This document shows positions 3,562-20,408 of a DNA stretch of 64,000 nt, piece after piece. Location: assembly GCA_028285755.1 (NCBI GenBank), contig JANQOQ010000006.1, positions 186,001 to 250,000 on the forward strand, in the 5' to 3' direction. The position numbers were made by a program, and so were the translations under genes. Below the pieces are notes generated by a model. That model was not told where the DNA came from, ran no database searches, and saw nothing but the letters and a program-made list of their open reading frames with translations. This DNA comes from Puniceicoccaceae bacterium. Lineage in GTDB: Bacteria > Verrucomicrobiota > Verrucomicrobiia > Opitutales > JAFGAQ01. Each line of letters opens with the position of its first letter. Position 1 is the stretch's first letter.

Positions 3562-6500
3562 TTAGAAGCGAAAGGTATTTGTGATGAAGAGTGTTTGCTC
3601 AGGCGGTATGCGAACCACAGCCAAACGACCATCCGGATTCACAAACACGGGGATATCCTCAGATGTGCGAATCGCATTGCGTATATTGAGCTGTATACGC
3701 CAATCGATTTTATCGTCGAAGATTGGTCGCTCGTAGCTGAACCAGATGTCACCGTTGAGTTCATCATCCCCCAGAAACGGATTATCCACATCCGGGATCT
3801 GGTCATCGTTTTCATTGAGCAGGAAGGGATAGCCAACGGCGGCTTCATCTTGCCAGCGTAGCGCACCGCCTACTCCAAAGCCTTTGATGGGGCCTTCGAT
3901 AAAGTCATAGTTGGTGATCAGATTTACCCGCCACGTACGCTGCTCCTGAGATTTTCTACCGTCGTTGGCCACTGCCGAACGCAACGGAAAAATCGCGTTG
4001 CGTTCGTAACGCCAGAGAAACGTCGCTTCCTCTGTAACCGAAGGGGCGTCCAATATCGTATCAAGACCCGCAGCCACAATATTCTGCTCTACCTGCGAAA
4101 TGAAGTCTCGTAGGACAGGTGCCGTATTTGACTGCACTGTCTCCTGTTTGGCAATATTGAGTGCTACACTCCAATTTGGCTTGATGGAGCCCACGAGCTC
4201 GATCTCCATACCGTCCGAAACAAAATCAAAGGTGGATGTCAGATTATTAATCGGCGTTTCATCTGTCGTGCCATCGTCTCGTATCTGAGGGTTAATCAGG
4301 CTGCGGGTGGGCTCAGGCATTAAATTGCGGATGACCTGATACATTTCCTCATAAGAACCGGCAGCCACCTGACCCCCGGTTTCGGAGAATGGGATATCCG
4401 CTAACTCCGCATCCTTCCAGCGTTCCAGCCAGTTGCCTATCCATTGCCAGGATCCCCCGAGAGCTCCACCGGCAGATGTACGGTTATTGGTGTTGCTGGT
4501 TTCATACCAGTTCACACGTAGCGAGAGCCTGCGCTCCAGGAACTCCAGGGTAAACCCATACTCCGACGTCTCCCCACGCGGAGCATCCACACGCTGCCCC
4601 AGAATATTCTGGCTGAATCCTGCCGGCTGGAAACTCTCTGCCTCATAATAGTGCACGCTCATATCCATACCGAAAGGCAGCTCAAACAAATACTTTTCGG
4701 GGAAGAAACCCACGATACTCGTAGTAAGCGTTTCATCGGTCTCGTCTGCGCTCGGGCTATCCTGAAGTCGCAGAATACCGTTATTAAACGTGCCGTCGGG
4801 GTTCAAAAGAGGTTGATCCCCATCGAACGTACCGCTCTCTTCCAACCGCTCAAATGCTTTCTCCTGATCTTTACGCCAGGCCAGAATGGTTACGATATGA
4901 TCGTCGAGAAAAGTGCTTTTCAGCGCAAAAGCCTCAGAAGTGAGCTCACGACGACTAATATCCGCATTCAGCAACACCTCCCGCGCAATAAACTCGGCCG
5001 TTTTACGCTCTTTGGCCACATTATCCCAATACATCAGCGTGTGACGTTCTCCATTCGTGGGAAACGGGTTATTCACTACATCTGTGACCCTTAAGTCATT
5101 CGGATCGGTAATATTGCCAATATTAGGCCCGACATAGGTAATTGCCCGAAGCTGGCGATTAAAGCCATTGGCCTGTTGATTATTGAAAATACCGTTTGAG
5201 GTAACATCAATCTCGTCACTATCCCAGACAAAGCGGTGTTGAGTAGAGTCAAAATCAGTATCCCTCTGTTCGAAAAGTGCAGTCAGTGTATGGCGACCCA
5301 CCCATTGACCCAGTTTGTCACCAAGGAAATCGCGTGTATCCACATCAATAAAGGCGGTGGCACGCACAATCTCCTGGTCAAGCTTTTCATAAGCAGTTGT
5401 GTAGTTTTGAATGCGCACAACCGGGCGTCCCACGTTCGGATTTGCCAGATCGTTGGACTGGGTAAGCGCAATATCCAGGTGCAGGTCCTTATCACGACCG
5501 GAAGACAGCGGGAGGCGTGAAGTCAACTCTCGCTGCTGACGATTGTAACTAAGCTCAACCCCTGCTTTACCGTCCCAAAATGTTTGGTCGATCGCCAGTT
5601 GCTGCACATCAAAGCTGGTTTCTACTGTGTTTGAAGTGCCCTGCAAGAGTCGGTTATGATAATCAAATATATCGCGATTCTGAATCGTGTAGGCACTGAA
5701 ACCAGGCAGATTATCAATACGACTACCGGAAAACCGCACATCCTGGCGGAGCCTTCCGGAACTGCCAGGCCAGCGGATACGCCCCTGGATACCGGAGAGA
5801 TTTCCAAATGCGGGATCTGCAAAGCCGGCTGTCTGTGTGTTTCCACTTCCATAGATTAAGGGGATTTGTAGCCAATAGGGGGTACTGCCCTGAGAGTTGT
5901 CCCGGCCTTCACGCGTGATGGTATTGACATAGGTAGTGGGGATAAACTCGCCAACTACATTACTGCCGGGGGGGATATCCTCGGGAGCCAGCGAATCCGT
6001 GCCCAAATCGGTAATATCGATACCGGGAACTGCCAACAGGCGCGGGACATCCTCGTAGCCAATAAACCAGGGGCTAAAGGCATCTACTGGCGGGATCACA
6101 TCAGGAGGTATCGAGTCAATCTCGCCAAACTCGACGTGACCGCGTATAGATGTCTGCCCAAGAAACTTACTGTTAGCGTTTTCAAACAATACCCCTTCAA
6201 ACGCGGCATAAATGCGCTGATCTTCCTCCTCGGCAGGTTCCTGCTTATATTTGAGTTTATCGTATAGCCCTGCCACACGTACTGCCAGGCGATCATCAAT
6301 GATACCCCGATTCACATCAAAGGTGCCTCGGTAGCTGCCGCGGTGATCAAAGCGGAGTTTCACCTCATTGATCGTCTCATTCAGGATAGCTTGCTTGAGC
6401 GAATGATCAAGCACTCCTCCCGGCGACCCAACACCAAAAAGCACTGAGTTGGGTCCGCGGTTGAGCGTGACCCGACTGGTATTATATTGATCGAAGGGGA

Positions 6501-7374
6501 TGACCGTGGAAAAATAGTCGCGCGTGAGCTCCGCTCTGGTTAGTCCACGAATTCTTTGACCGTTCTGGGGATTGCGCCTTGGCTGATTTGAATCAAATCG
6601 TGAGTTTCCACCAACGACTCCGGCTGAGTAGTTGCCGAGCACACCACCGACTTCAGTGTTTGCGGTATAGGTTAAAAGTGCCTGAGCGTCAGTCGCGCCG
6701 GTGTCTTCCAGGAATTCATCGGTAAGTATGCTGATGGAAGAACCCAACTCACGCACATTGGTACGAATTCGGGTACCGGCGAGGGTACTCTGTGCTGTGT
6801 AACCAGTGTCTTCTGTCGCATCGACAATAAAAGGAGACATGTAAAAGATATCTTCTTCCACATCTTCCTGTGCAGTAGCGGTAACGGTTCCACCTGCAAT
6901 AAGCAGTGAACCAATACCGCGCATAACCTGTGATAACCATGGATTTCTGGGTTTGCTGATAGTTAACATTTCTTGAGTTTTTTCAGGGTTATTATTGCTA
7001 ACTGTCAGATCATTGGAGAGCTCCGGGTCTTCATCCATTTCAACGAGTTCGATCATCCATGTACCGGTTATTGGCTCTTGCCTTGCGGAGAGAGCCGTAC
7101 CTGCAAACATGGATTGGATGGCCTCAGGGATAGTCATCGTGCCTTCTATACCATTGAGCTGGATACCTTTAACGGCATCCACGGCATAGATGAGTGATAT
7201 GTCTACCTGACTAAGGAACTCTGTAAGTGCACTTTCTGCTGCTTGAGTTGAGATACTAAAAATATATTGGTTTAACATCTCCTCATCCCTTGTAGTATCG
7301 ACGCTATCAGATTTTGCGTTACAGACTACAAGTTGCGACAAAACTGCGAGCCTTAAGATTGTACAAATACGCAT
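3562..7374 (-). CDS. TonB-dependent outer-membrane receptor with N-terminal STN signalling domain (FecA-type)
   Basis: The protein (1270 aa from ATG 7374) imports a ligand across the outer membrane and signals its presence. The ATG gives a signal peptide (MRICTILRLAVLSQLVVC); a 24-aa longer frame starting at a TTG at 7446 has no signal character. An STN domain follows (about 37-112), then an unexpected second signal-like hydrophobic stretch (about 137-168, MRGIGSLLIAGGTVTATAQ), the plug (from about 180, SPFIVDATEDTGY, LAGTRIRTNVRELGSSISIL), and a long 22-strand-type barrel ending in FITNTFRF, the C-terminal Phe needed for BAM assembly. The ECF sigma and FecR genes lie just upstream in the same direction, which makes this a complete FecI-FecR-FecA type cell-surface signalling set. 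The ligand is unknown; the neighbouring lyase and sulfatases suggest a glycan fragment. Confidence 0.92.
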   Translation of the reverse strand: MRICTILRLAVLSQLVVCNAKSDSVDTTRDEEMLNQYIFSISTQAAESALTEFLSQVDISLIYAVDAVKGIQLNGIEGTMTIPEAIQSMFAGTALSARQEPITGTWMIELVEMDEDPELSNDLTVSNNNPEKTQEMLTISKPRNPWLSQVMRGIGSLLIAGGTVTATAQEDVEEDIFYMSPFIVDATEDTGYTAQSTLAGTRIRTNVRELGSSISILTDEFLEDTGATDAQALLTYTANTEVGGVLGNYSAGVVGGNSRFDSNQPRRNPQNGQRIRGLTRAELTRDYFSTVIPFDQYNTSRVTLNRGPNSVLFGVGSPGGVLDHSLKQAILNETINEVKLRFDHRGSYRGTFDVNRGIIDDRLAVRVAGLYDKLKYKQEPAEEEDQRIYAAFEGVLFENANSKFLGQTSIRGHVEFGEIDSIPPDVIPPVDAFSPWFIGYEDVPRLLAVPGIDITDLGTDSLAPEDIPPGSNVVGEFIPTTYVNTITREGRDNSQGSTPYWLQIPLIYGSGNTQTAGFADPAFGNLSGIQGRIRWPGSSGRLRQDVRFSGSRIDNLPGFSAYTIQNRDIFDYHNRLLQGTSNTVETSFDVQQLAIDQTFWDGKAGVELSYNRQQRELTSRLPLSSGRDKDLHLDIALTQSNDLANPNVGRPVVRIQNYTTAYEKLDQEIVRATAFIDVDTRDFLGDKLGQWVGRHTLTALFEQRDTDFDSTQHRFVWDSDEIDVTSNGIFNNQQANGFNRQLRAITYVGPNIGNITDPNDLRVTDVVNNPFPTNGERHTLMYWDNVAKERKTAEFIAREVLLNADISRRELTSEAFALKSTFLDDHIVTILAWRKDQEKAFERLEESGTFDGDQPLLNPDGTFNNGILRLQDSPSADETDETLTTSIVGFFPEKYLFELPFGMDMSVHYYEAESFQPAGFSQNILGQRVDAPRGETSEYGFTLEFLERRLSLRVNWYETSNTNNRTSAGGALGGSWQWIGNWLERWKDAELADIPFSETGGQVAAGSYEEMYQVIRNLMPEPTRSLINPQIRDDGTTDETPINNLTSTFDFVSDGMEIELVGSIKPNWSVALNIAKQETVQSNTAPVLRDFISQVEQNIVAAGLDTILDAPSVTEEATFLWRYERNAIFPLRSAVANDGRKSQEQRTWRVNLITNYDFIEGPIKGFGVGGALRWQDEAAVGYPFLLNENDDQIPDVDNPFLGDDELNGDIWFSYERPIFDDKIDWRIQLNIRNAIRTSEDIPVFVNPDGRLAVVRIPPEQTLFITNTFRF

Positions 7375-7630
7375 TTCGGGGGTGACTTCTAAGTAGTAGG
7401 TATGCCCGGAAAAGTAAAAAAATACTTTTTGACTTTGGGTATTCAATACAGGGTGAGTAGTGGAGCAGTTAATGATCTACAGTTATTTTCACCCGGTAAG
7501 TCCTTGCGTATTGAAAAACCTACTAAAAAAAAGTGTTTGTTTGTAGTTTAGCTAGGTCATGATGAGTTAATTAAAGAACCCAAAAACTGTAGTTTTTGAT
7601 AATTGGAATTTTGAGAATCCAAACGGTGAC

Positions 7631-8674
7631 TTAATCGGAGCTTAGATAAATCGTTAAATCATCTGTTTCTTTCCAAATGATTCCGTAAGCTTCATTCAAA
7701 ACTCTTAGAAAGCCATAAACATCGTCGCTGGGGAAGCGACCGGCGATGCGAAAATCGGCTACTTCCGTATCTTGTATAATGAGCTTGCGTCCTGTTTTTT
7801 GTTCGAAAGTAGCAGCTATATCTTTCAGATATCCACCCTCAAGCATCAGCAAAGAGCTGTGCCACTCCAAGTCTTCGATCATATTCGGTGCAGTTTCGGT
7901 CAATTCAAAATGAGTAGGTAGTAAATCTTGATTTAGGGAAACGCTTACGCTTTGCCCTTCATTGACCGGTCCTAATTCTGTAAGTGACAGGTTGCTATTG
8001 GAGTTTTCTGGCGCTTCACTTCGAAAGTTGTTGATAGCGTTCGTCTTATCATTGATAATCACTGTGCCCTCGGTAATCGTTACATTGATCGTCTCGGCAG
8101 ATTTCAGTATATTAAATGCAGTCCCAATTGCTCGAACCTCAACATTCCCTACTAGGACCTGGAAAGGCCTTTCTATATCTTTTTGAACCGTGAAATGAGC
8201 CTCTCCTTGTTCCAATTCAAGTTCCCTGCTTATCGAACTATATGAGATTACAAGTGAAGTATTCGTGTTTAGTCGAACAATGGAACCATCTTCCAATATA
8301 TGAGTGATTGGGGTTTCCAAAGAAGTAATACTATGAACCTTATCCTTCTTTGTATTCCAAATGAAAAAAAATAAACTGAAAGTGAGTAATACGGTAACAG
8401 CGATCGAGGGTAGGATTAGCCTGTAAATTCTGTGTTCGTGCTTTTGGGTGATAGAACAATCAAAAGAATCACTCTCTGCCAATACTTTTCGGGCATTTTC
8501 CAAAGGTAGCTGCCTTATAAGATTTTGGGCTTTTTCGAGTTCGACAATCTCTAGATAGAGTTTCGGTTCTTCAGCGATTCGGGCATCTAATGTAAGCTTT
8601 TCCTTGTTGCTCAGGCCTTTTGATCTTTTCACTACCCAATCGGCCGCTTCGTCCTCTAAATCATGAAATTTCAT
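7631..8674 (-). CDS. FecR-family anti-sigma factor / sigma regulator
   Basis: The 347-aa inner-membrane protein links the TonB receptor to the ECF sigma factor. The N-terminal cytoplasmic part (residues about 1-70, AADWVVKRSKGLSNKEKLTL) is the DUF4880-like sigma-binding region. One membrane segment follows (about 92-110, LILPSIAVTVLLTFSLFFFI). The periplasmic FecR beta domain comes next (GSIVRLNTNTSLVI, ELEQGEAHFTV, VRAIGTAFNI), then a C-terminal STN/DUF4974-like domain (LKDIAATFEQKTGRKLII, ending in LTIYL). It starts 2 nt after the sigma-factor stop, so the two are translationally linked. The receptor gene follows after about 256 nt. Family knowledge says the receptor's STN domain contacts this protein when ligand binds. 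Confidence 0.93.
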   Translation of the reverse strand: MKFHDLEDEAADWVVKRSKGLSNKEKLTLDARIAEEPKLYLEIVELEKAQNLIRQLPLENARKVLAESDSFDCSITQKHEHRIYRLILPSIAVTVLLTFSLFFFIWNTKKDKVHSITSLETPITHILEDGSIVRLNTNTSLVISYSSISRELELEQGEAHFTVQKDIERPFQVLVGNVEVRAIGTAFNILKSAETINVTITEGTVIINDKTNAINNFRSEAPENSNSNLSLTELGPVNEGQSVSVSLNQDLLPTHFELTETAPNMIEDLEWHSSLLMLEGGYLKDIAATFEQKTGRKLIIQDTEVADFRIAGRFPSDDVYGFLRVLNEAYGIIWKETDDLTIYLSSD

Positions 8675-8676
8675 AA

Positions 8677-9228
8677 TTACAATATGTTCTTATGAACAAA
8701 ATATTTGCGGCATTTTTTCAAACCGATTGCGAGTTGGGTTTGTATGGTATTAACTGATATTCCCAAACGCTTTGCGATTTCCTTCTGAGATAGTTTTTCA
8801 AAGTGAAAATAGATAAAAATACGTTGGCATCTTTTGGGTAATGTCCTGATTGCATCTTCCAAAATCTTGTGATCATCCAGTTGCGTTAGGGTATTTATGG
8901 GTGTAACTTCATTATTTAAGACGTCGAAATTGTCCATATCAGCCAAATAATCGGTTTTAGAATTGTACTTCTTACCAATTTCGTCCAATAGGAGATTGCA
9001 CGCTATTTTAAATAAAAGACCTCTGGGTGTAATTACAGTAGTCCTTCTTTTAACGGATATAATCCGTTTATAGCAATTTTGTATCACATCGTCGACTTCA
9101 ACCGTTTTGGGTAATCTCGTACATAAATACGCCCTGAGTTCACCCTCATAGATTTTAACTTCATCTTCAAACCATTTGGAGATGTGGTTATCCGCTTCTA
9201 TATCTAATTGGGCCTGATGATTCATCAT
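8677..9228 (-). CDS. ECF-family RNA polymerase sigma factor (FecI-like)
   Basis: The 183-aa protein has only the two ECF domains. Sigma-2 spans about residues 22-95 (YEGELRAYLCTRLPKTVEVDDVIQNCYKRI, then PRGLLFKIACNLLLDEI). Sigma-4 spans about 120-175, with LPKRCQRIFIYFHFEKLSQK and the helix-turn-helix EIAKRLGISVNTIQTQLAIG. ATG 9228 and ATG 9225 are adjacent candidate starts. It is the first gene of the sigma/anti-sigma/receptor series. Its upstream gap is shared with the divergent lyase gene and holds an operator-like element, so both transcriptional control by the GntR protein and post-translational control by FecR are likely. Confidence 0.93.
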   Translation of the reverse strand: MMNHQAQLDIEADNHISKWFEDEVKIYEGELRAYLCTRLPKTVEVDDVIQNCYKRIISVKRRTTVITPRGLLFKIACNLLLDEIGKKYNSKTDYLADMDNFDVLNNEVTPINTLTQLDDHKILEDAIRTLPKRCQRIFIYFHFEKLSQKEIAKRLGISVNTIQTQLAIGLKKCRKYFVHKNIL

Positions 9229-9337: not shown

Positions 9338-9459
9338 GATTCCTATATGTCAAATCCTATATTCACTCATATTTGTGAGAACTTTGCTATGCCTCCTTCT
9401 CATCAACTTTTCAGATCATATCTGGAAACTTCACCCTTAAATCATAACCCCCTATATAT

Positions 9460-11655
9460 ATGAAACAAATATATGCATACCTCCTGGTCGTAATCGGCCT
9501 GTCGTCGCTGTATGGTCAATATGGCGATATCCCCGCATCCCGCATGGCTCCCAGTGGCTGGCAAAATATCCAGTTCAACGACCCCGGCGGCTGGACCACT
9601 ATAAACGTCACCCAGAACGGTCTCCCCGCCAACGACAGCTCGATCGACGCCGGCCAGAAGCTCGAGGACATCGTCGCCAGCACCTCCGGCCGGCGCCGCA
9701 TCTACTTCCCCGCTGGCACCTACACCTTCAAGACCACCGCGACCCTCAACGTCAGCGGCGACATCTGGATCGACGGCGACGGCATGGATCAGACCGTCTT
9801 CAACCTGGACTTCCCCAAGTGGCAGAAGATAAACGGCATCGAGATTAAGGGGCCGTTCAATCCCCCCGGGGGAACTTCGAATGTCGACATCGTGGGCACT
9901 CCCAACCGAGGCGATAATCAGATCACCGTGACCAACGCCAGCCAGTTCCAGGTCGGCGACTACGTGAGAGTCAAGTACACCTACACCGCCAGCGACGGAG
10001 ACGAGGTTCCCGTTGGTCAGTTTGTCAAGGTCACCGCCAAGTCCGGCACGACTTTGACCGTGGACCTTAAGATGGGCGTGGACTTCGAACCCGGCGGCAC
10101 GGTGCGCGAGTACGACTTTGCTGACAACGTGCGGGTGACAGACCTCACCATCAGGCGCCTGCGCCTGGGCGACCGCAACGACGGCAACCTCAGGCTGGTC
10201 TACTGCCGCAACTTCGAGGTAAGAAACGTGGAGTCGATCAAGGCCACCACCCACGGCATCCTGGCCTTCGAGTGCCGCGATGGGATCATCACGGAGTGTG
10301 AGGTGCACGAACGTTGGGGCAACGAAGGGGGCTACGCCTACGGCATCACCGTCGGACAGCTTTCCACCCGTGTGCACGTCACCAACAACTATTGCTACAA
10401 TCTACGCCACCACATCGAGCTGGCTAACTCTCCCAACCACTGCGTGATCAGCTACAACAAGACAGACCCATTATATGCCTACAGTGATATTGGGGCGCAC
10501 CACGGAGACCAGTCACACAACAACCTCTTCGAAGGTAACGACGGCCGCCAGATCGTCATGGCCCTGGACGCACATGCAAAGGCCTGGTGGAATACTTTTT
10601 ACCGCAACAAGGCTGACGGGACGGTGGGCTCACAGAGCAGCCAGTTCGAGACGACGACCATCGTGGGTAACGAGACACCGGGCATCAGCTTCAGCGGGAG
10701 CAACAACTACAAGGGTGCCAACATTGTCAACGGAGTTTTCCAGGCTGATTCGCTCGCCGCAGGCAGTAATCTCCCGGCTTCCCTATATCTCTCTTCGCAG
10801 CCCAGCTACGTAGCATCCTGGCCACTCTTTGGCCCCGGTACCGGTGGAGGCGGTCAAACCGGAGGAACATTTGAAGCGGAAGACTTGCCCGTCTACGACA
10901 GTGCTCACCCCGAAGTAAAAGCTTCCGGAGCAATGAGCAATGGCTTTTACAGTTTTATCAGCGATTGTGTTGATAACGATTTTATTGAATACACAGTAAA
11001 TGTAGCGGGTGCAGGTCTGAAGAATCTAGAAATCAGAGCTTCAGTCGGGCCGGCTCGCGGGCAATGGCAACTCGTTCTAAATGGAGTCGATACGGGAGCT
11101 GTTTTCGATGCCTACAGCGCAAGTTGGGGGCAAACAACTGTAAATATGGGTGCCTTGAATTTCCTCAATGGCGATAACAAGATAGCATTCAGAATTGTAG
11201 GTAAAAACCCTGCCGCAACTTCACGCAACGTGGGATACGATTACTTCGCAATTGCAGGACAAAAATCTGAAGCGGAAAACTTGCCCGTCTACGACAGTGC
11301 TCACCCCGAAGTGAAAGCTTCCGGAGCAATGAGTAATGGCTTTTACAGTTTCATCTCTGATTGCGTAGATAATGACTTCATCGAGTATACGATCAACGTC
11401 GCAAACGCCGGATTGCAAAATCTGAAGATCAGAAGTTCTGTGGGACCTGCTCGAGGAAAATGGCAGTTGGTTGTAAATGGAGTCGATACCGGGGCCGTTT
11501 TCGATGCCTACAGTGCAAGTTGGGGGCAAACAACTGTGGACAGAGGATTGATTAATTTCGTCGCCGGGGACAACAAGATAGCATTCAGGATCGCAGGCAA
11601 GAATGCCAATGCAACATCACTCAACGTAGGATTCGATTACTTTTTGTTGGAGTAG
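9460..11655 (+). CDS. Secreted right-handed beta-helix (pectate-lyase-like) protein with two CBM-like domains
   Basis: The 731-aa protein starts with a signal peptide (MKQIYAYLLVVIGLSSLYG). Residues about 40-455 form a pectate-lyase-like parallel beta-helix (RRRIYFPAGTYTFKTTATLN, IWIDGDGMDQTVFNL, then His- and Asn-rich coils with HHIELANSPNHCVISYN). A Gly-rich linker (about 458-471) leads to two tandem CBM6/35-like modules of about 130 aa (472-603 and 604-731), each starting EAE(D/N)LPVYDSAHPEVKA. The fold fits a polysaccharide lyase or glycoside hydrolase acting outside the cell; the catalytic residues and exact family could not be assigned. The helix-coding part is much richer in GC (72% in the line at 9661) than the CBM part (42% in the line at 11161), which suggests a chimera. 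It is divergent from the FecIRA-type genes, with the operator between them. Confidence 0.85.
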   Translation: MKQIYAYLLVVIGLSSLYGQYGDIPASRMAPSGWQNIQFNDPGGWTTINVTQNGLPANDSSIDAGQKLEDIVASTSGRRRIYFPAGTYTFKTTATLNVSGDIWIDGDGMDQTVFNLDFPKWQKINGIEIKGPFNPPGGTSNVDIVGTPNRGDNQITVTNASQFQVGDYVRVKYTYTASDGDEVPVGQFVKVTAKSGTTLTVDLKMGVDFEPGGTVREYDFADNVRVTDLTIRRLRLGDRNDGNLRLVYCRNFEVRNVESIKATTHGILAFECRDGIITECEVHERWGNEGGYAYGITVGQLSTRVHVTNNYCYNLRHHIELANSPNHCVISYNKTDPLYAYSDIGAHHGDQSHNNLFEGNDGRQIVMALDAHAKAWWNTFYRNKADGTVGSQSSQFETTTIVGNETPGISFSGSNNYKGANIVNGVFQADSLAAGSNLPASLYLSSQPSYVASWPLFGPGTGGGGQTGGTFEAEDLPVYDSAHPEVKASGAMSNGFYSFISDCVDNDFIEYTVNVAGAGLKNLEIRASVGPARGQWQLVLNGVDTGAVFDAYSASWGQTTVNMGALNFLNGDNKIAFRIVGKNPAATSRNVGYDYFAIAGQKSEAENLPVYDSAHPEVKASGAMSNGFYSFISDCVDNDFIEYTINVANAGLQNLKIRSSVGPARGKWQLVVNGVDTGAVFDAYSASWGQTTVDRGLINFVAGDNKIAFRIAGKNANATSLNVGFDYFLLE
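10873..11652 (+). repeat. Tandem duplication of a CBM-coding module
   Basis: Two adjacent copies (10873-11265 and 11269-11652) encode about 130-aa modules that are roughly 84% identical by eye, with long identical DNA runs around CTACGACAGTGCTCACCCCG. Most differences are silent or conservative, which implies a fairly recent in-gene duplication. Two modules should raise binding avidity for the substrate. Confidence 0.9.
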
Positions 11656-12077: not shown

Positions 12078-13457
12078 TCACCACCTATGTTTAACTACAG
12101 GCGGAACTTTTAATGACCTAATCCAGTCTTTAAAAAGAGTGCGATGTTCGCTAAGTATGGATAAATACTGGGAATCTTCTGCAAGATTTTGCTTTTCTCC
12201 TGGGTCTTTGATCATATCGAACAGTTGCTCTACGGGGTCCTCATAGTAAGTTATGTATTTGTATCTTTGAGTCCTCAGCATTTGCCCTCGGTTCTCTTCA
12301 ATTTCAGAAGTTACAAATTCTCTTTCAAGAGACCTATTGTTAGACAATAAACAGCCTAAACTTTGCCCGGTCATATCGTTAGGCTGGACGATTCCTGCGA
12401 TATCACACATAGTAGGAAAAATATCGACTCCTGATACTAAATCTTGGTTGTTAACCAGTGCTTCCGGGTAGTGACCCGGCCAGCTGAAAATCAAGGGCAC
12501 TTTGGATGCTTCATCGTAGTGAAACGCTTTACGCACCATTTTATGGTGGCCCAGGCCTTCTCCGTGATCCGACGAAAACACAATCGCAGTGTTGTTTTTG
12601 TGAGCAGATGAATTCAGCGCATCCAATACGCGTTTTATTTCCGCATCGACCATTTCAACATGCCGGTAGTACGCCCATATGTAGTAACGCCAATCGTCGT
12701 CGCTCCATCCCGTATTGACGCCCTCCCATTCCAGACGCCTGAGTCTCACGAGTTCGGGCTCGTTTTCAGGAATCTCAAAATTGTCAGGCAGGGGAGGGAG
12801 CTCACCATGAATTTGGGTAAATGGTAAGTGGGTCTTTCCTTTGCGGTTAAAGCGAAGCCATTCGCAAATATCATGCGGCTGCATGTAGTTGATCGCCATG
12901 AGGAATGGCTTTTGGCCTGAGGAATAATTCTTAAAAAAAGCTTCTGCGGCAAATGTGTATGAACTATCCGATAATGCTCCGGGACCCCCATGGCCGCAAA
13001 ATGGCACTTCAAAACCGGGGACTCGCGAGGATACATAGGCCGGCACATGCCATTTCCCCATATATACTGTTTCGTAGTCTCCTTTTTCCCGAAACCACTC
13101 ACCCATGAATGGGATTCCATCCACTGGTCTCTCGCCGTTACCGGTAACACCTACTTCAGAGGGCATACGACCTGTATAAACTGCTGCTCTGCAGGGTCCG
13201 CAAACGGGACTTGGGCAATAGGACTGTTCAAAACTTACGCCCCTCTCAGCAATTTCATCCATCCCGGGAGTTTTCAAATAGGGGCACCCCAGCGCAGATA
13301 TGGTATCAATATGTTGCTGATCGGTAAAAATAAAGAGTATGTTCGGCTTTTTTTGAGTCTTACTCGTTACTATCGAAAAAAGTTGAGGGGAATATACGGA
13401 ACTCGTAGCAAGTCCTGTAGCCGTCTTTTGAACAAAGTCGCGTCGGGTTATTTTCAT
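12078..13457 (-). CDS. S1-family sulfatase, Tat-exported
   Basis: The 459-aa protein starts with a twin-arginine signal (MKITRRDFVQKTATGLATSS). The formylglycine site is CGPCR at residues 86-90 in PVCGPCRAAVYTG; Cys86 would be oxidised by a maturase not found in this window. The site fits CxPxR, but Cys replaces the usual Ser or Thr at the fourth position. Metal ligands are visible in IFTDQQH (Asp46) and SSDHGEGLGHHKM. The fold is that of arylsulfatase-type polysaccharide sulfatases, which remove sulfate esters from glycans in the periplasm. It starts 2 nt after the upstream unrecognised gene and is probably in its transcript. Its 3' end abuts the IS3 remnant. Confidence 0.93.
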   Translation of the reverse strand: MKITRRDFVQKTATGLATSSVYSPQLFSIVTSKTQKKPNILFIFTDQQHIDTISALGCPYLKTPGMDEIAERGVSFEQSYCPSPVCGPCRAAVYTGRMPSEVGVTGNGERPVDGIPFMGEWFREKGDYETVYMGKWHVPAYVSSRVPGFEVPFCGHGGPGALSDSSYTFAAEAFFKNYSSGQKPFLMAINYMQPHDICEWLRFNRKGKTHLPFTQIHGELPPLPDNFEIPENEPELVRLRRLEWEGVNTGWSDDDWRYYIWAYYRHVEMVDAEIKRVLDALNSSAHKNNTAIVFSSDHGEGLGHHKMVRKAFHYDEASKVPLIFSWPGHYPEALVNNQDLVSGVDIFPTMCDIAGIVQPNDMTGQSLGCLLSNNRSLEREFVTSEIEENRGQMLRTQRYKYITYYEDPVEQLFDMIKDPGEKQNLAEDSQYLSILSEHRTLFKDWIRSLKVPPVVKHRW

Positions 13458-13459
13458 AA

Positions 13460-14242
13460 TCAGCGATTTTTGAGTCGGTTAATGTGGTTCTGATAGTGAG
13501 CTTCAGGCTCATCGTGCAGCATCCAGATATTGAACGCATTGACTGCCAATAGAAGAACGCCACTTTCGGTCACCCAATATTCATAGGGTAAGTTTCCGAT
13601 GCCGAAATGTTGAAAATAAAGCAAGTTAACAGATTCGTCATACAGTGATATCTGCTCTTTCCCGGCGTAGTGCAGAGTTTGATTTTTTTTGAGCAATGAA
13701 AATTCCTGGAAGTAATCAAATTCGATGGAATCTCTTACATCTACGAGTGATCCTTGAAAGCTTGCGGGCAGCGAATAATCACTGAGCCAATGATTCGCAA
13801 TCTGAAATTGGTGATTCGCTCCATTCACTGTCTCACTTATGTATCCTTCCTGATAAAAACCTTGCTTAATGAGCGAATAGCGCGGTATCAGCTGATCCTC
13901 TGAATTAGTGAAATCACTCTTCATATACCATTGCACAGGAGTGCTGAATAGGTCATTTTTGCAGGTGATTTTAGCTTTGATATGATGCTCGTGATTCGCA
14001 ATTCCTGCACGTTTCAAGTCGATATCGAGTGTAATTGTATTACTCTTCGAATCCTCCTGAATACATTTAAAACTAAAAACACCCATTTCGTGATCAATTT
14101 CTTGGTAACCGTGCTGAGCGATCCAGAGATAAGATCGAGGTTTTTGGGGGTCACTTATTATAGGATCAATATGAGGTGCAGACCACGATTCTAACGATTG
14201 TAAGGATTTGAGGTCTAAAGGCTGATCCATTATAGTTCTCAT
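13460..14242 (-). CDS. Unrecognised protein co-transcribed with a sulfatase
   Basis: The 260-aa protein has no signal peptide, membrane segment or motif I can assign. It is rich in aromatic residues and alternating hydrophobic patterns (IEFDYFQEFSLLKKNQTLHY, YWVTESGVLLLAVNAFNIWM), which suggests a mostly beta fold. The C-terminus ends in a charged helix. It precedes the sulfatase by 2 nt on the minus strand. Its upstream gap is shared with the second sulfatase and holds the GntR-type operator, so it probably belongs to the same polysaccharide regulon. The ATG at 14242 and another four codons later (MRTIM) are both possible starts. No function is proposed. Confidence 0.7.
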   Translation of the reverse strand: MRTIMDQPLDLKSLQSLESWSAPHIDPIISDPQKPRSYLWIAQHGYQEIDHEMGVFSFKCIQEDSKSNTITLDIDLKRAGIANHEHHIKAKITCKNDLFSTPVQWYMKSDFTNSEDQLIPRYSLIKQGFYQEGYISETVNGANHQFQIANHWLSDYSLPASFQGSLVDVRDSIEFDYFQEFSLLKKNQTLHYAGKEQISLYDESVNLLYFQHFGIGNLPYEYWVTESGVLLLAVNAFNIWMLHDEPEAHYQNHINRLKNR

Positions 14243-14330
14243 TTCGGAAGATAATAGGGGAATAAATGATAATAAATATAACTCTAAAATTTCTCTATGG
14301 AACGAACACGTGGCAGATTGATAAAGCTAT

Positions 14331-14356
14331 ACTTATTGTACTTGTAATACCAGTTG
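14331..14356. promoter_or_regulatory. Predicted GntR/FadR-type operator, copy 3 (sulfatase divergent gap)
   Basis: The palindrome ACTTGTA-A-TACCAGT lies at 14340-14354 and includes TTGTAATACCA. The element ends 24 nt before the sulfatase ATG at 14380. A possible -10 box TATAAG (14363-14368) follows at once, so a bound repressor would cover the promoter. The 137-bp gap also serves the divergent unrecognised gene. Confidence 0.72.
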
Positions 14357-14379
14357 AATTTCTATAAGTCAAATGCTTA

Positions 14380-15747
14380 ATGAAATCATTTCTATCCTAT
14401 ATTTTACTAGGTTTGAGTTCGATCGCATATTCGATGCATCCCAATATGATTATTATTTTTACGGATGACCAAGGCTATGCAGATGTGGGCTTTCATGGCT
14501 CCACTGAAATTCCAACTCCTAACATCGATCGTATTGCTGATAATGGGGTCGTCTTCACGAATGGCTATGTTACCTTTCCTACTTGTGGACCTAGCAGAGC
14601 GGGCTTATTGACAGGTCGCTATCAAGGCAGATTTGGATTTAATTTTAATCCAACGACGAACCCAGCAATGCCCCATGCTGGTATTTCGCACAATGAAGAA
14701 ACAATTGCGGAAATCCTGGCAAAGGCAGATTACCACAGCATGATCATCGGCAAGTGGCACATGGGCAGTCACCCCAGCCAACATCCCCTGAATCGTGGTT
14801 TTAATGAGTTTTTCGGATTCCTTGCTGGGGGACTTCGCTATTTCCCGGAGGAGTTGATTCTGAATGACCTCTCTGAAGTAGAGAGGATGTGGCAGTGGTA
14901 TCAGGTTAAACTGATGCGAGATTTTGAGCAAGTGGAGTCCCGGGGATATTTAACCGATGTTTTAAGCAACGAAGCGGTTAAGTTTTTGGAAAGGCAGTCT
15001 CGCCAGCAAAAGCCCTTTTTTCTATATTTGGCTTACAATGCCCCTCACGGCCCCCTACAGGCGACAGAAAAATATTTAAAACGCTTCAGTCATATCGAAG
15101 ATGAGGACCGAAGAACTTATGCTGCTATGGTCAGTGCACTGGATGATGGAGTAGGCAGGCTGCTGGATACTCTGAATGCGATGAAACTACATGAAGGTAC
15201 TATCGTTGTCTTTCTATCAGATAACGGTGGGGCCCGCACAAATGCCTCTGATAATACTCCATTACGCGATTACAAAGGCACTTTGTTTGAAGGAGGCATA
15301 CGGGTACCATTTGCTATGCAATGGCCTGGAGTCATTGAAGCAGGAAGCGTATTTGAAGAGCCAGTAATCTCAATGGATATTCTGGCAACCATGGTTGGAT
15401 TAACAGAAGTTGACATTGCCGATAAGAGGCCGCTGGACGGTGTTAACCTATTGCCGTATCTCTCCGGTAAAAATAAAGGAAGTCCTCATGAAACGCTGTT
15501 CTGGAAAGATATACGCAATAGCGCCTGGGCCGTAAGAAAGGGAAATTTCAAAGTGGTTTTTGAGCCGGAAGATGCACCTGAACCTCTTTTGTTCGACTTA
15601 TCTGTAGATTTTTCTGAGAATAATGACTTAGCTTCGAAATATCCAGAGATAGTTAAATCATTTGCAGAAGCCTTTGAGCAGTGGAACCAAACTCAAGCTC
15701 CCAACGCATTTCCAGGTACCCGTCAAGACAGATGGTGGGAAAGATAA
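14380..15747 (+). CDS. S1-family sulfatase, secreted
   Basis: The 455-aa protein carries a Sec signal peptide (MKSFLSYILLGLSSIAYS). The formylglycine motif CGPSR is at residues 69-73 in PTCGPSRAGLLTGRYQGR, a canonical CxPSR site. The metal-binding start IIIFTDDQGYADVG and the later FLSDNGGARTNASDN segment (Asp and Asn ligands) are intact. It resembles the arylsulfatase A-like sulfatases common in marine polysaccharide loci. It is divergent from the other sulfatase pair, with the predicted operator directly upstream. The leader after a possible TATAAG box would be only a few nucleotides. The substrate glycan is inferred to be shared with the beta-helix enzyme. Confidence 0.94.
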   Translation: MKSFLSYILLGLSSIAYSMHPNMIIIFTDDQGYADVGFHGSTEIPTPNIDRIADNGVVFTNGYVTFPTCGPSRAGLLTGRYQGRFGFNFNPTTNPAMPHAGISHNEETIAEILAKADYHSMIIGKWHMGSHPSQHPLNRGFNEFFGFLAGGLRYFPEELILNDLSEVERMWQWYQVKLMRDFEQVESRGYLTDVLSNEAVKFLERQSRQQKPFFLYLAYNAPHGPLQATEKYLKRFSHIEDEDRRTYAAMVSALDDGVGRLLDTLNAMKLHEGTIVVFLSDNGGARTNASDNTPLRDYKGTLFEGGIRVPFAMQWPGVIEAGSVFEEPVISMDILATMVGLTEVDIADKRPLDGVNLLPYLSGKNKGSPHETLFWKDIRNSAWAVRKGNFKVVFEPEDAPEPLLFDLSVDFSENNDLASKYPEIVKSFAEAFEQWNQTQAPNAFPGTRQDRWWER

Positions 15748-16027
15748 GGGCAGCAAACTAAATCGTATTACCATTTAGCAGACATTATCCGATTCTGCTA
15801 CTAGCTAAATACGGATAATCTTGCTCAGTCGTTTTTCGACTCTTCTTTATAGATGTCTTCATTACCATATTAAGGAACAGGTCTCAATCATTTTGAGAGA
15901 TCATAGAAGGACCCAAGCCTGAATATATAATTTAAATATCCCAGGGCATTTCGAGATCACCTCAGAATGAGCATTGGCTCGGATGTTCTCAAAAAGTGTT
16001 ATCGGTTTGCTATTAGCACCGAAAAAC
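15748..16027. other. Non-coding gap between sulfatase and tRNA gene
   Basis: No gene was seen. It holds only weak inverted repeats, such as AGTCG-TTTTT-CGACT near 15826 and TCTCAA-TCAT-TTGAGA near 15882. Neither is followed by a good T-run, so no terminator is called. Confidence 0.5.
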
Positions 16028-16103
16028 TGGCCCGGGAGGGGGGAGTCGAACCCCCGACCTTCGGTTTAGAAGACCGCTGCTCTATCCACTGAGCTACTCC
16101 CGG
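16028..16103 (-). tRNA. tRNA-Arg (anticodon TCT)
   Basis: A full 76-nt cloverleaf reads on the minus strand: acceptor CCGGGAG / CTCCCGG, discriminator G and an encoded CCA, D-arm GCTC-AGTGGATA-GAGC, anticodon loop CTTCTAA giving UCU, five-base variable loop AGGTC, and T-arm GGGGG-TTCGACT-CCCCC. All stems pair except 27-43, which is G opposite A at the top of the anticodon stem. It reads AGA codons. The bases between the tRNA and the nucleoside hydrolase (16104-16229) show no other feature. Confidence 0.95.
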
Positions 16104-16229
16104 AAGTCGTTATTGGTTATTACTTTGTATCAGATGCACATCGCCTCTTTTGCAAACCAATTTTAGCGACAAACCCAAATACCAACTAGGTCTGTCTCCC
16201 TTTTGCAATACTATAACGGCAAACAGTCC

Positions 16230-17156
16230 TTAAAACTCGCTGACCACTTCTACGAAATCATCGATAATCGCCGCTCCATCGAGATCGCGGACAACCGTAA
16301 TCATTCTCGAGGTGTTATCCGGGGGAGTTTGCACCTCGATCATCTCCACGGTATCGGGATCCGTCATGGCTTGCAACGGGCCTAAATCCCAGATGGTGCG
16401 ATTCGGGTAGGAGCCATCCAGATGGTGCTTCCAACGCTCATAAATAAATTTGCCGGCATCCGTGCCGCTGAATGAATCCCGAACCACATGATAGTTGATC
16501 TGAAGTTGGATCGCGACATTGTTGGGCACCACGATCATTTCCAGCTCCGCAGCATCGAGCGCGACGTTTAGTGCATGGGGATCCATAATGCAGTTGAAGG
16601 TAGTCTTGTGCCAGATTTCCTTCTCAAAATCATAACGCATTCCCAGATAATAAAGCCGAATATTCGGTGCAATTTCCGGTGCAATCAAAAGCGCCGAAGC
16701 GACATTCGTAAGTGCTCCCAGCGCCAGCACGTTCAACTTGTTTTCAGGTGAAAAATCCTTCGAAGTTTCAATAATATTATAGGCAGCCGCACTGTGCTGG
16801 GCTACATCCTGACCCCAGTCATGGAGGCGGTCCCGGCTGCCGCGGGGCAGGGGGATGTCTTTCCGATCGTAGAGCGCCATGAGCCGGCGATTCACACGAT
16901 GACTTTGCTCCTGCGTATTTTCGACCGCCCAATGGCTGGCCTGCCACTGTGTGGAATTCAACGCGAGGATATCAAGTCTCGGATCAACAATGGCTCTTGC
17001 AAGCGCATACACATCATCCACTTCGTTTGCAGTATCCGCATCAATGATCACGGGAATTTTCTCGGCGACTGCTGATGCATGAATAATCAAAAATGCGACA
17101 AAGCACAACAGAGATTGCTTAACTGGATTTTTCGGGGCTTTAGCTAGGTAACTCAT
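16230..17156 (-). CDS. Inosine-uridine preferring nucleoside hydrolase-family protein, exported
   Basis: The protein is 308 aa from ATG 17156; a longer frame from a TTG at 17255 adds 33 residues without signal character. The N-terminus MSYLAKAPKNPVKQ, then LLCFVAFLIIHASAVA, is a signal peptide. The calcium-site signature reads IIDADTANEVDDVYAL (Asp39, Asp41, Asp47, Asp48), close to the family DTDxxxDD pattern. A second acidic site reads FNCIMDPHALNVALDAAE, as in the family. The enzyme would cleave the N-glycosidic bond of a nucleoside or a similar glycoside in the periplasm. Many polysaccharide loci carry such proteins with unproven substrates. It is divergent from the fucosidase operon across about 200 bp in which no operator was recognised. 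Confidence 0.88.
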   Translation of the reverse strand: MSYLAKAPKNPVKQSLLCFVAFLIIHASAVAEKIPVIIDADTANEVDDVYALARAIVDPRLDILALNSTQWQASHWAVENTQEQSHRVNRRLMALYDRKDIPLPRGSRDRLHDWGQDVAQHSAAAYNIIETSKDFSPENKLNVLALGALTNVASALLIAPEIAPNIRLYYLGMRYDFEKEIWHKTTFNCIMDPHALNVALDAAELEMIVVPNNVAIQLQINYHVVRDSFSGTDAGKFIYERWKHHLDGSYPNRTIWDLGPLQAMTDPDTVEMIEVQTPPDNTSRMITVVRDLDGAAIIDDFVEVVSEF

Positions 17157-17356
17157 TTTAAAGAAGATTAAAATTAAGGGTGTATAATTCAAGTTTTTGG
17201 ATATAAAACACCTGCCTGACAGATTCAAGACTCGATGATCTACAGGATAATCCAAGAAACTTTATCCCAATTAAAGCAGGTTAACTACATGGGATATCAA
17301 TATATTAGAGCAGTTTTAGGTTTTGGGCGTTGGTGACGATGAAATAGGCTATTTCC

Positions 17357-18883
17357 ATGCGTAAATTATCTACATATTCAATCGTTGCTCTGCTTACTCT
17401 ATTTTCTCTCACAAACACTTTAACTGCCGGGAAATATGAGGCCAATTGGGAATCCCTCGGCGAATACGAAATCCCCGAGTGGTTTACCGATGCCAAGCTG
17501 GGCATATTCATCCACTGGGGTGTATACAGCGTACCTGCTTACCGCTCCGAATGGTACCCCCGCATGATGTATCTCGACAAGAAGGTCTGGAGCGCACAGG
17601 GCAATATCCAAACCAAAGATGGCCGGGCACCCGATAAGCCCGTTACGCATGTCCATGAGCACCATGTCACTACCTATGGCCCCCTGGATGAATTTGGCTA
17701 CAAGAACTTTATCCCGATGTTCAAGGCTGAAAATTTCGACGCGGCAGAGTGGGTGAGCCTGTTCAAAAAAGCGGGCGCCAAATACGTCGTCCCCGTTGCC
17801 GAGCACCACGATGGCTTTGCCATGTATGATTCCAACATTACACGCTGGGACAGTGTAAACATGGGTCCCAAGCGCGACATTCTTGGCGAAATCAGCGAGG
17901 AAGCCAAAAAACAGGGCCTCTACCTTGGAGCTTCTTCCCACTTTGCCTTCAATTGGTCCTACTATAACAAGAAGCACGGCTGGGACACTGCTGACCCCAA
18001 ATACTCAGACCTCTACGGATGGAACAACAACCCCCTCGAATGGGTGGATGATGACTTCCTGGAGCTCTGGTGGGCGCGCACCAAGGATATCATAGACAAC
18101 TACGAGCCGGACATTCTGTGGTTTGACTTCTTCATCGATAAGCCCGAATTCGTCCCTTACCACCCAAAACTGGCAGCCTACTACTACAACAAAGGCGAAG
18201 AGTGGGGCAAGGAAGTCGTCCTGCAGACCAAGAATTTTCACGACTTCAAGTCTTATCCTGAAGGCACCCACGTATGGGACCTTGAGCGGGGCAAACTCAC
18301 CGATATATACGAATATACCTGGCAGACGGATACCTCCATCGGGGCAAATTCCTGGGGATACGTTACCAACTGGATTTCCAAGACGCCGAACCGCATCGTT
18401 GATAACCTGATCGATATCGTCAGTAAAAACGGGTGCCTGCTCCTCAACGTAGGCCCCAAGGCGGATGGCACCATCCCTGATGACCAAAAAGAAGTGCTTC
18501 TGGAGCTGGGCAAGTGGCTGGACGTTAATGGCGAGGCCATCTACGAAAGCCGCCCGTGGAAACGATTTGGGGAAGGCCCCACAGAACAGGCAGAAGGCCA
18601 CCATTCCGAAGCGCGCAATGCAGACCTCACCTCAAAGGACAAACGCTTTACAACCCGTGACGGCAATATCTACGCAATCATCATGGACTGGCCGGAAGAT
18701 GGAACCGTAAATATCCAGTCATTCGGCAAAGAATCCGGATACGTGGGCGAGATCGAATCCGTTGCACTGCTCGGTTACGATGAAGCGCTTTCCTGGGGGC
18801 AAACCGACTCTGCGCTGAGAGTCTCTCTGCCGAAGCAAAAACAGGGTGACTATGCGCACACGCTCGTCGTCCGGGAAAAATAG
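17357..18883 (+). CDS. Alpha-L-fucosidase, GH29
   Basis: The 508-aa secreted enzyme has a signal peptide (MRKLSTYSIVALLTLFSLTN, Thr-Ala-Gly region) and a GH29 TIM barrel. Fucose-binding motifs are complete: IHWGVYS (His53), VAEHHDGFAMYDS (His150 and His151 region), and the nucleophile segment PDILWFDFF with Asp257. The usual LLLNVGPKADGTIPDDQ stretch lies before the C-terminal beta domain (about 420-508). It would hydrolyse terminal alpha-L-fucosyl residues with retention. It is the first gene of a four-gene plus-strand run (fucosidase, fucosidase, sulfatase, oxidoreductase) with 24-nt and 4-nt gaps, which points to sulfated fucose-containing glycans. Local codon use is somewhat richer in GC than in the lipocalin-to-glycan genes downstream. 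Confidence 0.95.
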   Translation: MRKLSTYSIVALLTLFSLTNTLTAGKYEANWESLGEYEIPEWFTDAKLGIFIHWGVYSVPAYRSEWYPRMMYLDKKVWSAQGNIQTKDGRAPDKPVTHVHEHHVTTYGPLDEFGYKNFIPMFKAENFDAAEWVSLFKKAGAKYVVPVAEHHDGFAMYDSNITRWDSVNMGPKRDILGEISEEAKKQGLYLGASSHFAFNWSYYNKKHGWDTADPKYSDLYGWNNNPLEWVDDDFLELWWARTKDIIDNYEPDILWFDFFIDKPEFVPYHPKLAAYYYNKGEEWGKEVVLQTKNFHDFKSYPEGTHVWDLERGKLTDIYEYTWQTDTSIGANSWGYVTNWISKTPNRIVDNLIDIVSKNGCLLLNVGPKADGTIPDDQKEVLLELGKWLDVNGEAIYESRPWKRFGEGPTEQAEGHHSEARNADLTSKDKRFTTRDGNIYAIIMDWPEDGTVNIQSFGKESGYVGEIESVALLGYDEALSWGQTDSALRVSLPKQKQGDYAHTLVVREK

Positions 18884-18907
18884 GTTAAGCGCACAGAGAA
18901 GCTTATC

Positions 18908-20404
18908 ATGAAACCCTTCTGGCTGCACCTCAAAGTCATCCCACTTTTCTTAGCGGGGCTCACCCATGCGGATGAGCCCTACAAAGCGGATTGGGATTCC
19001 CTGAGAGCTTACACCTGCCCGGAATGGTTTCAGGATGCAAAGTTCGGCATCTACGCACACTGGGGGGTATACTCAGCCGCTCTTGGTAGTAGAAATACCG
19101 ACTGGTATGGCCGCAATATGTACGAAAAGGGTCACCCGAATCATGAGTTTCACACAAAGACCTATGGAGATGTCTCAGCGTTCGGCTATAAGGATTTGAT
19201 CCCGCTCTTCACCGCAGAAAAATTTGATGCCGAAGAGTGGGCGGACCTTTACGTGGAAGCCGGTGCCCGTTTTGCAGGGCCGGTTGCCGAGCATGCGGAT
19301 GGCTTCTCCATGTGGGACTCGAAGGTCAATCCCTGGAACAGTGTGGACATGGGCCCACGACGCAATGTCGTTGCAGAAATGGAAAAAGCCATACGCAAAC
19401 GCGGTCTCAAATACCTGACCAGTTTTCATCATCAGTGGCTCTGGGGTTGGTTCCCCACCTGGGATGAATCCACGGACGCCAGCGATCCGGAATACGCTTC
19501 GCTGTACGGTCCTAAATACCCGCCAACTGCACGAAGAATCGAAGTAGAGGGTAGGGGTGAGGCCAACATGTATGCGGACCCGCTGCCCAGTAACGCGTTT
19601 AACCAGGCCTGGCTGGAAAAAGTAAAGGAAGTCGTCAGTGAATACTCTCCGGATCTGCTTTGGTTTGATAACCGCATGCAGCTGTTGCCCGAGGAAATCC
19701 GCACCGAAATGGCCGCCTTCTATTACAATCATTCGCTCTCTCAGGGCATAGAACCGGTACTCACCTACAAGCGCCCGGACATGAAGCTGGGAACCGCCAC
19801 CATCGATCTCGAACGCGCCCGCATGCCCGATATTTACCCCGAGCCCTGGCTGACGGATACCTCAGTATCTCGCTCTTCCTGGTCCTATGCGACCGATCTG
19901 GAGTACTACACCACCAACCGCATCATCGATGACCTGGTGGATATCGTCAGCAAGAACGGCTGTATGCTGCTCAATATCGCACCGCATCCGGATGGCACTA
20001 TACCCGAAATCCAAAAAAGGAAGCTTCGGGAAATCGGTAAATGGCTGCGACTCAATGGCGAGGCCATCTATGGAAGCCGCCCCTGGTTAATCTACGGAGA
20101 AGGCTCCAGCGTAACGCCCACCGGGCACCTGGCCGACCTGAAATTCATCGGTTACAGCCCGGATGATATTCGCTTTACCACAAAGGGCGAACAGCTCTAT
20201 GCGATCGCGTTGGATTGGCCGGAAACCGGAGTGCTTGAAATAAACAGCCTCAGTGACTCTAAATATTCAACTGCGATCAGAGGCATTGAGCTCATCGGGC
20301 ATAAGGAGCCTCTCAACTGGGTTAAGACGGTAGACACACTCAAAGTGTATTTACCTGAGATCAAGCCCGGTAATCACGCATTTGTATTCAGAATTCTACG
20401 ATAG
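18908..20404 (+). CDS. Alpha-L-fucosidase-like protein, GH29, altered active-site motif
   Basis: The 498-aa secreted GH29 paralogue has a signal peptide ([20 protein letters not shown]). It keeps [10 protein letters not shown] (His51), the nucleophile segment [10 protein letters not shown] (Asp254) and [16 protein letters not shown]. The pair of His that binds fucose in the family (HHDGF) is here [11 protein letters not shown], so the second His is Ala130. That suggests altered sugar specificity, such as a substituted fucose or galactose, rather than loss of function, because the rest of the barrel is well kept. It lies 24 nt after the first fucosidase and 4 nt before a sulfatase, so the set may act in sequence on one glycan. 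Confidence 0.92.
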
Positions 20405-20408
20405 TGTT

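What the first reader, a model, noticed from the sequence alone, without database searches (positions are those of the whole stretch)
9460..11655. Chimeric lyase: GC-rich beta-helix joined to AT-rich duplicated binding modules
The catalytic-type region (9540-10450) is strikingly GC-rich (43 of 60 in the line at 9661), while the two CBM modules are near the local average (25 of 60 in the line at 11161). The composition change coincides with a Gly-rich linker at about 10831-10872. This looks like an acquired catalytic domain fused to a local module that later duplicated.
Basis: seen in the sequence. Interest (0 to 1): 0.6.

Follow-up and report, generated by a model that had tools for sequence, protein, structure and literature searches.

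The report
Mosaic lyase gene with foreign core
A marine-type Verrucomicrobial bacterium carries a secreted sugar-polymer-cutting enzyme whose catalytic core has a foreign DNA composition, spliced between a host-type signal peptide and a pair of host-type sugar-binding modules; it is an unusually clear example of enzyme evolution by swapping domains, not a new kind of system.

Summary
ORF 9460-11655 (731 aa) encodes a signal peptide, a right-handed beta-helix, a Gly-rich linker and two tandem beta-sandwich modules (83% aa identical). Third-position GC (GC3) is 0.83 in codons 37-424, 0.56 before and 0.47 after. Among 293 sampled host genes (mean 0.51) this core is the most extreme stretch; ribosomal-protein genes are 0.38-0.59, so expression bias is an unlikely cause. 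The break is codon 424 (415-435, nt 10705-10765), about 100 nt before the linker, not at it.

The genome holds a second copy (L002, 87% aa in the helix) with a similar GC step but unrelated modules, and two diverged paralogues (44%) without it. The only other close relatives in roughly 800 sampled genomes are genes of one Pelagicoccus MAG; they too are GC-rich for their host. The window copy and L002 are 88-96% identical (DNA) at both domain ends and about 78% in the middle: a recombination mosaic.

Best reading: a GC-rich helix core from an unsampled donor recombined into a host-type modular gene. The fold and a Y...RH motif resemble phage K1-capsule lyases; activity is untested. "Later duplicated" is not shown: every paralogue carries its own pair.

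The parts
9431..9516 (+). 5' edge of the shared cassette: about 29 nt of leader plus the signal-peptide codons 1-19 (MKQIYAYLLVVIGLSSLYG)
   Evidence: DNA similarity to L002 starts here and not further upstream; 92% over about 100 nt; the Pelagicoccus signal peptide differs
9517..9567 (+). N-cap of the helix domain, codons 20-36, host-like composition (GC3 0.53)
   Evidence: closest to L002 in 996/1000 resamplings; left composition break at codon 36, interval 35-58
9568..10731 (+). GC-rich foreign core of the right-handed beta-helix, codons 37-424, GC3 0.83
   Evidence: model pLDDT 89.4, pTM 0.92; fold matches
10732..10830 (+). C-terminal tail of the helix domain, host-like composition (GC3 0.56)
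   Evidence: right break codon 424, interval 415-435; closest to L002 in 989/1000 resamplings
10831..10872 (+). Gly-rich linker; DNA similarity to L002 ends within it
10873..11268 (+). binding module 1 (CBM35-like beta-sandwich by sequence), GC3 0.41
11269..11652 (+). binding module 2, 83% aa and 77% nt identical to module 1, GC3 0.52
   Evidence: phmmer to 7ehg MiXBM E 8e-9
3562..9228 (-). divergent neighbours: TonB-receptor-like protein (3562-7446), FecR anti-sigma protein (7631-8674), sigma-70 region 4 protein, ECF-type (8677-9228)
   Evidence: Pfam FecR and Sigma70_r4; receptor by DNA similarity to the L012 receptor, whose Pfam Plug hit is; no Pfam hit of its own at 1e-6
12078..22016 (.). 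polysaccharide-degradation genes downstream: sulfatases (12078, 14380, 20382) and two alpha-L-fucosidases (17357, 18908)
   Evidence: Pfam

Best explanation
The gene encodes a secreted polysaccharide-degrading enzyme (beta-helix plus two binding modules) beside genes for a sulfated, fucose-containing polysaccharide. Its coding sequence is a recombination mosaic: codons 37-424, nearly the whole beta-helix core, come from a GC-rich lineage (third-position GC about 0.9) not represented in the collections searched, and lie between host-type ends (leader, signal peptide and N-cap; helix tail, linker and the tandem modules). The ends shared with paralogue L002 suggest that the exchange used homology at the conserved edges of the helix domain. 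Shown: a composition step with two borders, relationships that change along the gene, unrelated modules on close relatives of the same core. Inferred: horizontal origin, direction and mechanism, and the catalytic chemistry (most likely beta-elimination on a uronate-containing polymer, with Tyr294 and the Arg316/His317 pair at the active site).
For: Composition: first of 1578 segments of the sampled host genes; codon-usage log-odds towards the Pelagicoccus-locus genes +0.25 per codon in the core and -0.17 to -0.34 elsewhere in the ORF (host genes -0.21, sd 0.07; that donor reference set contains the helix genes themselves). Ribosomal-protein genes GC3 0.38-0.59. Diverged paralogues of the same architecture show no step (L003 0.51, L004 0.48 throughout), so the fold does not force high GC3. 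Mosaic: informative sites where the window copy agrees with L002 against L012 are 19% inside nt 105-1098 of the ORF and 65% outside, 0/100 permutations reach this; synonymous sites only, Fisher p 3e-5; the closest pair changes along the gene. DNA similarity between window and L002 is confined to the cassette. Distribution: relatives over 80% only in this genome and one Pelagicoccus MAG. Same core with different modules.
Against: The presumed donor is unsampled: the Pelagicoccus MAG has background GC3 of only 0.68 (sd 0.10), while its two helix genes are at 0.88, so it is a recipient or a relative, not a demonstrated source. Tree support for short segments is uneven (FastTree supports 0.09-0.98), and p-distances can be biased by shared composition. 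The segment borders used in the site tests were chosen with knowledge of the data. Window and L002 are only about 78% identical in the middle, so the events are not recent. Lyase activity and substrate are untested.
Confidence: 0.75

Rival explanations
1. The whole gene, helix plus modules, is native and old; the GC-rich core arose in place by GC-biased gene conversion among copies of this helix subfamily.
For: Only the multi-copy, mutually similar subfamily (window, L002, L012, L013) is GC-rich, and it is GC-rich in two hosts relative to each background.
Against: The parts most homogenised between the two copies in this genome (the ends, 88-96% DNA identity) are the GC-poor ones, while the GC-rich middle is the most diverged (about 78%), opposite to the expectation for conversion within this genome.
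Confidence: 0.12
2. Direct transfer within the order, with a Pelagicoccus-like bacterium as the donor of the core.
For: Only close relatives found; 85% aa identity to the window copy and 92% to L002.
Against: The helix genes are above the Pelagicoccus background too (0.88 against 0.68); synonymous-codon identity in the core is only about 0.7; absent at this similarity from 56 relatives of that MAG.
Confidence: 0.1
3. Local codon selection (expression or mRNA structure) keeps this region GC-rich in a vertically inherited gene.
For: The GC-rich block coincides with the enzyme core of a probably inducible secreted protein.
Against: Ribosomal-protein genes of this genome are 0.38-0.59; L003 and L004 have no step; relationships change along the gene.
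Confidence: 0.03

Closest known systems
Klebsiella phage K1-capsule lyases (7w1c/7w1d, 9k4a), right-handed beta-helix depolymerases
   Same: Best structural match (7w1c Z 29.8, rmsd 3.4 over 345 residues; tied within 1 Z with 8ja4 and 7chu), best profile match (9k4a E 4e-19), weak K1-lyase Rider Pfam hit, and a conserved YG...RH motif: Tyr294 to Arg316/His317 has the 22/23 spacing of Tyr311 to Arg333/His334 in the K1 lyase (PMC8822698).
   Different: About 13-14% identity; no tailspike parts; secreted cellular enzyme with binding modules; spacing of the later His and Arg differs and was not matched residue by residue.
BT3328 family hyaluronic acid endo-lyase (NCBIfam NF058554)
   Same: Weak profile similarity in 10 of 16 family members, best 6e-9.
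   Different: Far below the curated cut-off (24 against 1100 bits).
Fucoidan lyase FdlA (Flavobacterium sp. SA-0082)
   Same: A beta-helix lyase acting on a fucose- and uronate-containing polymer (PMC9410043); the fucosidases and sulfatases next to the window gene suggest a comparable substrate.
   Different: No sequence or structural relation was shown here.
MiXBM (7ehg) and Pfam CBM_35
   Same: phmmer E 8e-9 to MiXBM for module 2; CBM_35 at 22.9 bits for the full protein.
   Different: Below the CBM_35 gathering score of 28; ligand unknown. That MiXBM is a xanthan-binding module is from memory.
Modular carbohydrate-active enzymes that exchange catalytic and binding modules (general knowledge)
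   Same: One catalytic core with different C-terminal modules in different genes.
   Different: Here the exchange borders lie just inside the edges of the catalytic domain and carry a strong composition signature.

Membership tests
[quoted passage not shown]
   Model pLDDT 89.4, pTM 0.92; many beta-helix enzymes at Z 23-30 over about 260-360 residues
K1-capsule-lyase-like | sequence relation to a K1-specific depolymerase by profile | tested here: met
   9k4a E 4.4e-19, profile positions 94-302
K1-capsule-lyase-like | catalytic Tyr, His and Arg (Tyr311, His373, Arg397 in K1 lyase) | tested here: inconclusive
   Tyr294 nearly invariant and Arg316/His317 invariant with the spacing of Tyr311/Arg333/His334; His348 nearly invariant and Arg382 invariant but at different spacing (PMC8822698)
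polysaccharide lyase | beta-elimination activity on a uronate polymer | not testable with these tools
   needs an enzyme assay
BT3328 family hyaluronic acid endo-lyase | NCBIfam equivalog cut-off | tested here: not met
   24.4 bits against 1100
CBM35 (Pfam CBM_35) | gathering score | tested here: not met
   22.9 against 28 for the whole protein, 17.3 for module 2 alone
horizontally acquired domain | composition unlike the host | tested here: met
horizontally acquired domain | patchy distribution and conflicting relationships along the gene | tested here: met
horizontally acquired domain | identified donor lineage with matching composition | tested here: inconclusive
   the only close relative, a Pelagicoccus MAG, has background GC3 0.68 against 0.88 for its helix genes

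The most novel reading that the evidence does not exclude
The helix core is a roaming catalytic cassette: conserved edge sequences (leader/signal-peptide side and helix-tail/Gly-linker side) serve as recombination sites, so that the same core is repeatedly moved between modular enzyme genes within a genome and between bacterial families, pairing with different binding modules.
Probability: 0.25. Interest if true: 0.6.

Novelty: new member of a known kind. Interest (0 to 1): 0.4.

Why it matters
It is a readable intermediate in the modular evolution of an enzyme: borders of a foreign catalytic core can be placed within tens of bases, a second copy with different borders and different modules sits in the same genome, and diverged paralogues serve as internal controls. 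It suggests that domain exchange need not happen at the flexible linker. It also points to an uncharacterised capsule-lyase-like enzyme subfamily in Verrucomicrobiota next to fucosidases and sulfatases.

Tried and rejected
Plasmids and annotated phages: no match to the helix by tblastn. Viral contigs: none. Expression-driven codon bias: disfavoured by the ribosomal-protein genes. Fold-imposed GC: rejected by L003/L004. Module copies elsewhere in the genome: only 25-32% relatives. Pelagicoccus as simple donor: weakened by its own background GC3. An iqtree bootstrap run timed out and was replaced by FastTree and resampled distances. FdlA was not among the structures listed; that does not exclude a relation.

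Full report
What is there. The ORF at 9460-11655 encodes a signal peptide, a beta-helix domain (about aa 20-457), a Gly-rich linker (458-471) and two tandem modules (472-603, 604-731). The helix was modelled from a 16-sequence alignment at pLDDT 89.4 and pTM 0.92. The best structural relatives are Klebsiella K1-capsule lyases, an alginate epimerase/lyase, a Geobacillus-virus protein and AlgE epimerases, tied within about 2 Z units, and the profile's best sequence match is a K1-specific depolymerase. Pfam gives only sub-threshold Beta_helix, CBM_35 and K1-lyase Rider hits. The word 'lyase' is therefore plausible but unproven. Invariant or nearly invariant residues include Tyr294, Arg316, His317, His348 and Arg382. 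The first three keep the spacing of Tyr311, Arg333 and His334 of the K1 lyase, of which Tyr311 is catalytic (PMC8822698).

Composition. GC3 per segment is 0.56 (codons 1-36), 0.94 (37-123), 0.80 (124-424) and 0.47 (425-731). The sampled host genes (293 genes, 129,606 codons) average 0.51 with sd 0.057, and no other 388-codon stretch outside this family exceeds 0.71. The right border is codon 424, interval 415-435, and the left border codon 36, interval 35-58. Both borders lie within the edges of the helix domain; the linker is about 100 nt further on. Ribosomal-protein genes have GC3 0.38-0.59, so the step is not how this host writes highly expressed genes.

Paralogues in the same genome. L002 (contig C5) is 87% identical in the helix and also has a GC step (codons 182-418 0.81, then 0.52), but its modules are CBM6-type and unrelated. 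L003 and L004 (44% identical) have flat GC3 of 0.51 and 0.48 and their own module pairs. DNA similarity between the window gene and L002 starts about 29 nt before the start codon and stops in the linker; both flanks are unrelated.

Mosaic structure. Window against L002 DNA identity is 92-96% at the signal peptide and N-cap, about 73-85% through the core and about 88-90% at the helix tail. Comparison with the Pelagicoccus gene L012 as a third sequence gives similar borders: agreement of window and L002 is 19% of informative sites within ORF nt 105-1098 and 65% outside (0/100 permutations), and the contrast survives on synonymous sites alone, signal peptide left out (28/133 inside codons 37-370 against 31/59 outside, p 3e-5). 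The closest pair is window+L002 at codons 20-36 and 425-465 (996 and 989 of 1000), window+L012 at 37-100 (752) and L002+L012 at 101-180 and 181-304 (923 and 977). This is what recombination between related cassettes leaves behind; which copy received what cannot be read from three sequences.

Relatives elsewhere. Close relatives of the helix (over 80%) were found only in one MAG, Pelagicoccus sp. IP29b_bin.57; the prefix matches a sample code of the coral-skeleton study of Isopora palifera (PMC9868349). It carries two or more copies: L012 with a ricin-type module, L013 with a CBM6/35-type pair that resembles the pair on L003 of the present genome (64-70%), and an N-terminal fragment at a contig end (L039). 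None was found in four same-family genomes, in 372 genomes of the order (one of them, G719, gives the same coordinates and scores as this MAG and is taken to be it), in 387 of the phylum or in 56 relatives of the MAG; more distant homologues (23-40%) are scattered. The MAG's own background GC3 is 0.68, sd 0.10, so its helix genes (0.88) are unusual there as well. I infer a third, GC-rich source.

The modules. The two window modules are 83% identical in protein and 77% in DNA, with identity ranging from 0.96 to 0.62 along the module, as patchy gene conversion would leave. In nearly every paralogue the two modules of a pair resemble each other more than any other module (L016 is the exception), so pairs either arose repeatedly or are homogenised. 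The order 'fusion, then duplication' is not established. Composition says the pair is host-like; no close copy exists elsewhere in this genome, so 'local' rests on composition alone.

Setting and function. Upstream and divergent lie an ECF-type sigma factor, a FecR protein and a TonB-receptor-like protein; downstream are three sulfatases and two alpha-L-fucosidases. The L004 gene likewise sits beside a sigma-factor-like gene and a FecR gene, and the L012 gene near a TonB receptor. The likely role is initial extracellular cutting of an acidic, fucose-containing, sulfated polysaccharide, with the module pair holding the enzyme to its substrate. This step is inference.

Judgement. It is a clear instance of a known process.

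Noticed in passing
L071 6079-8121 (G000 contig C2): Another gene with an unusually GC-rich 388-codon stretch (GC3 0.71), the highest outside this family in the sample; not identified.
   Followed up: no
window 17357-18883 and 18908-20404: Two adjacent alpha-L-fucosidase genes with GC3 of 0.64 and 0.62, above the genome mean, next to sulfatases.
   Followed up: partly
L002/L055, L013/L095 and L004/L070: FAD-dependent oxidoreductases (PF12831) recur near helix-enzyme genes in both genomes.
   Followed up: partly
L013 codons 1-121: In the Pelagicoccus copy GC3 drops from 0.99 to 0.84 at about the same aligned position (near window codon 425) as in the window gene.
   Followed up: partly
L005 and L016: Two further proteins of this genome (a BNR-repeat protein and another secreted protein) also end in a pair of related binding modules.
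   Followed up: partly
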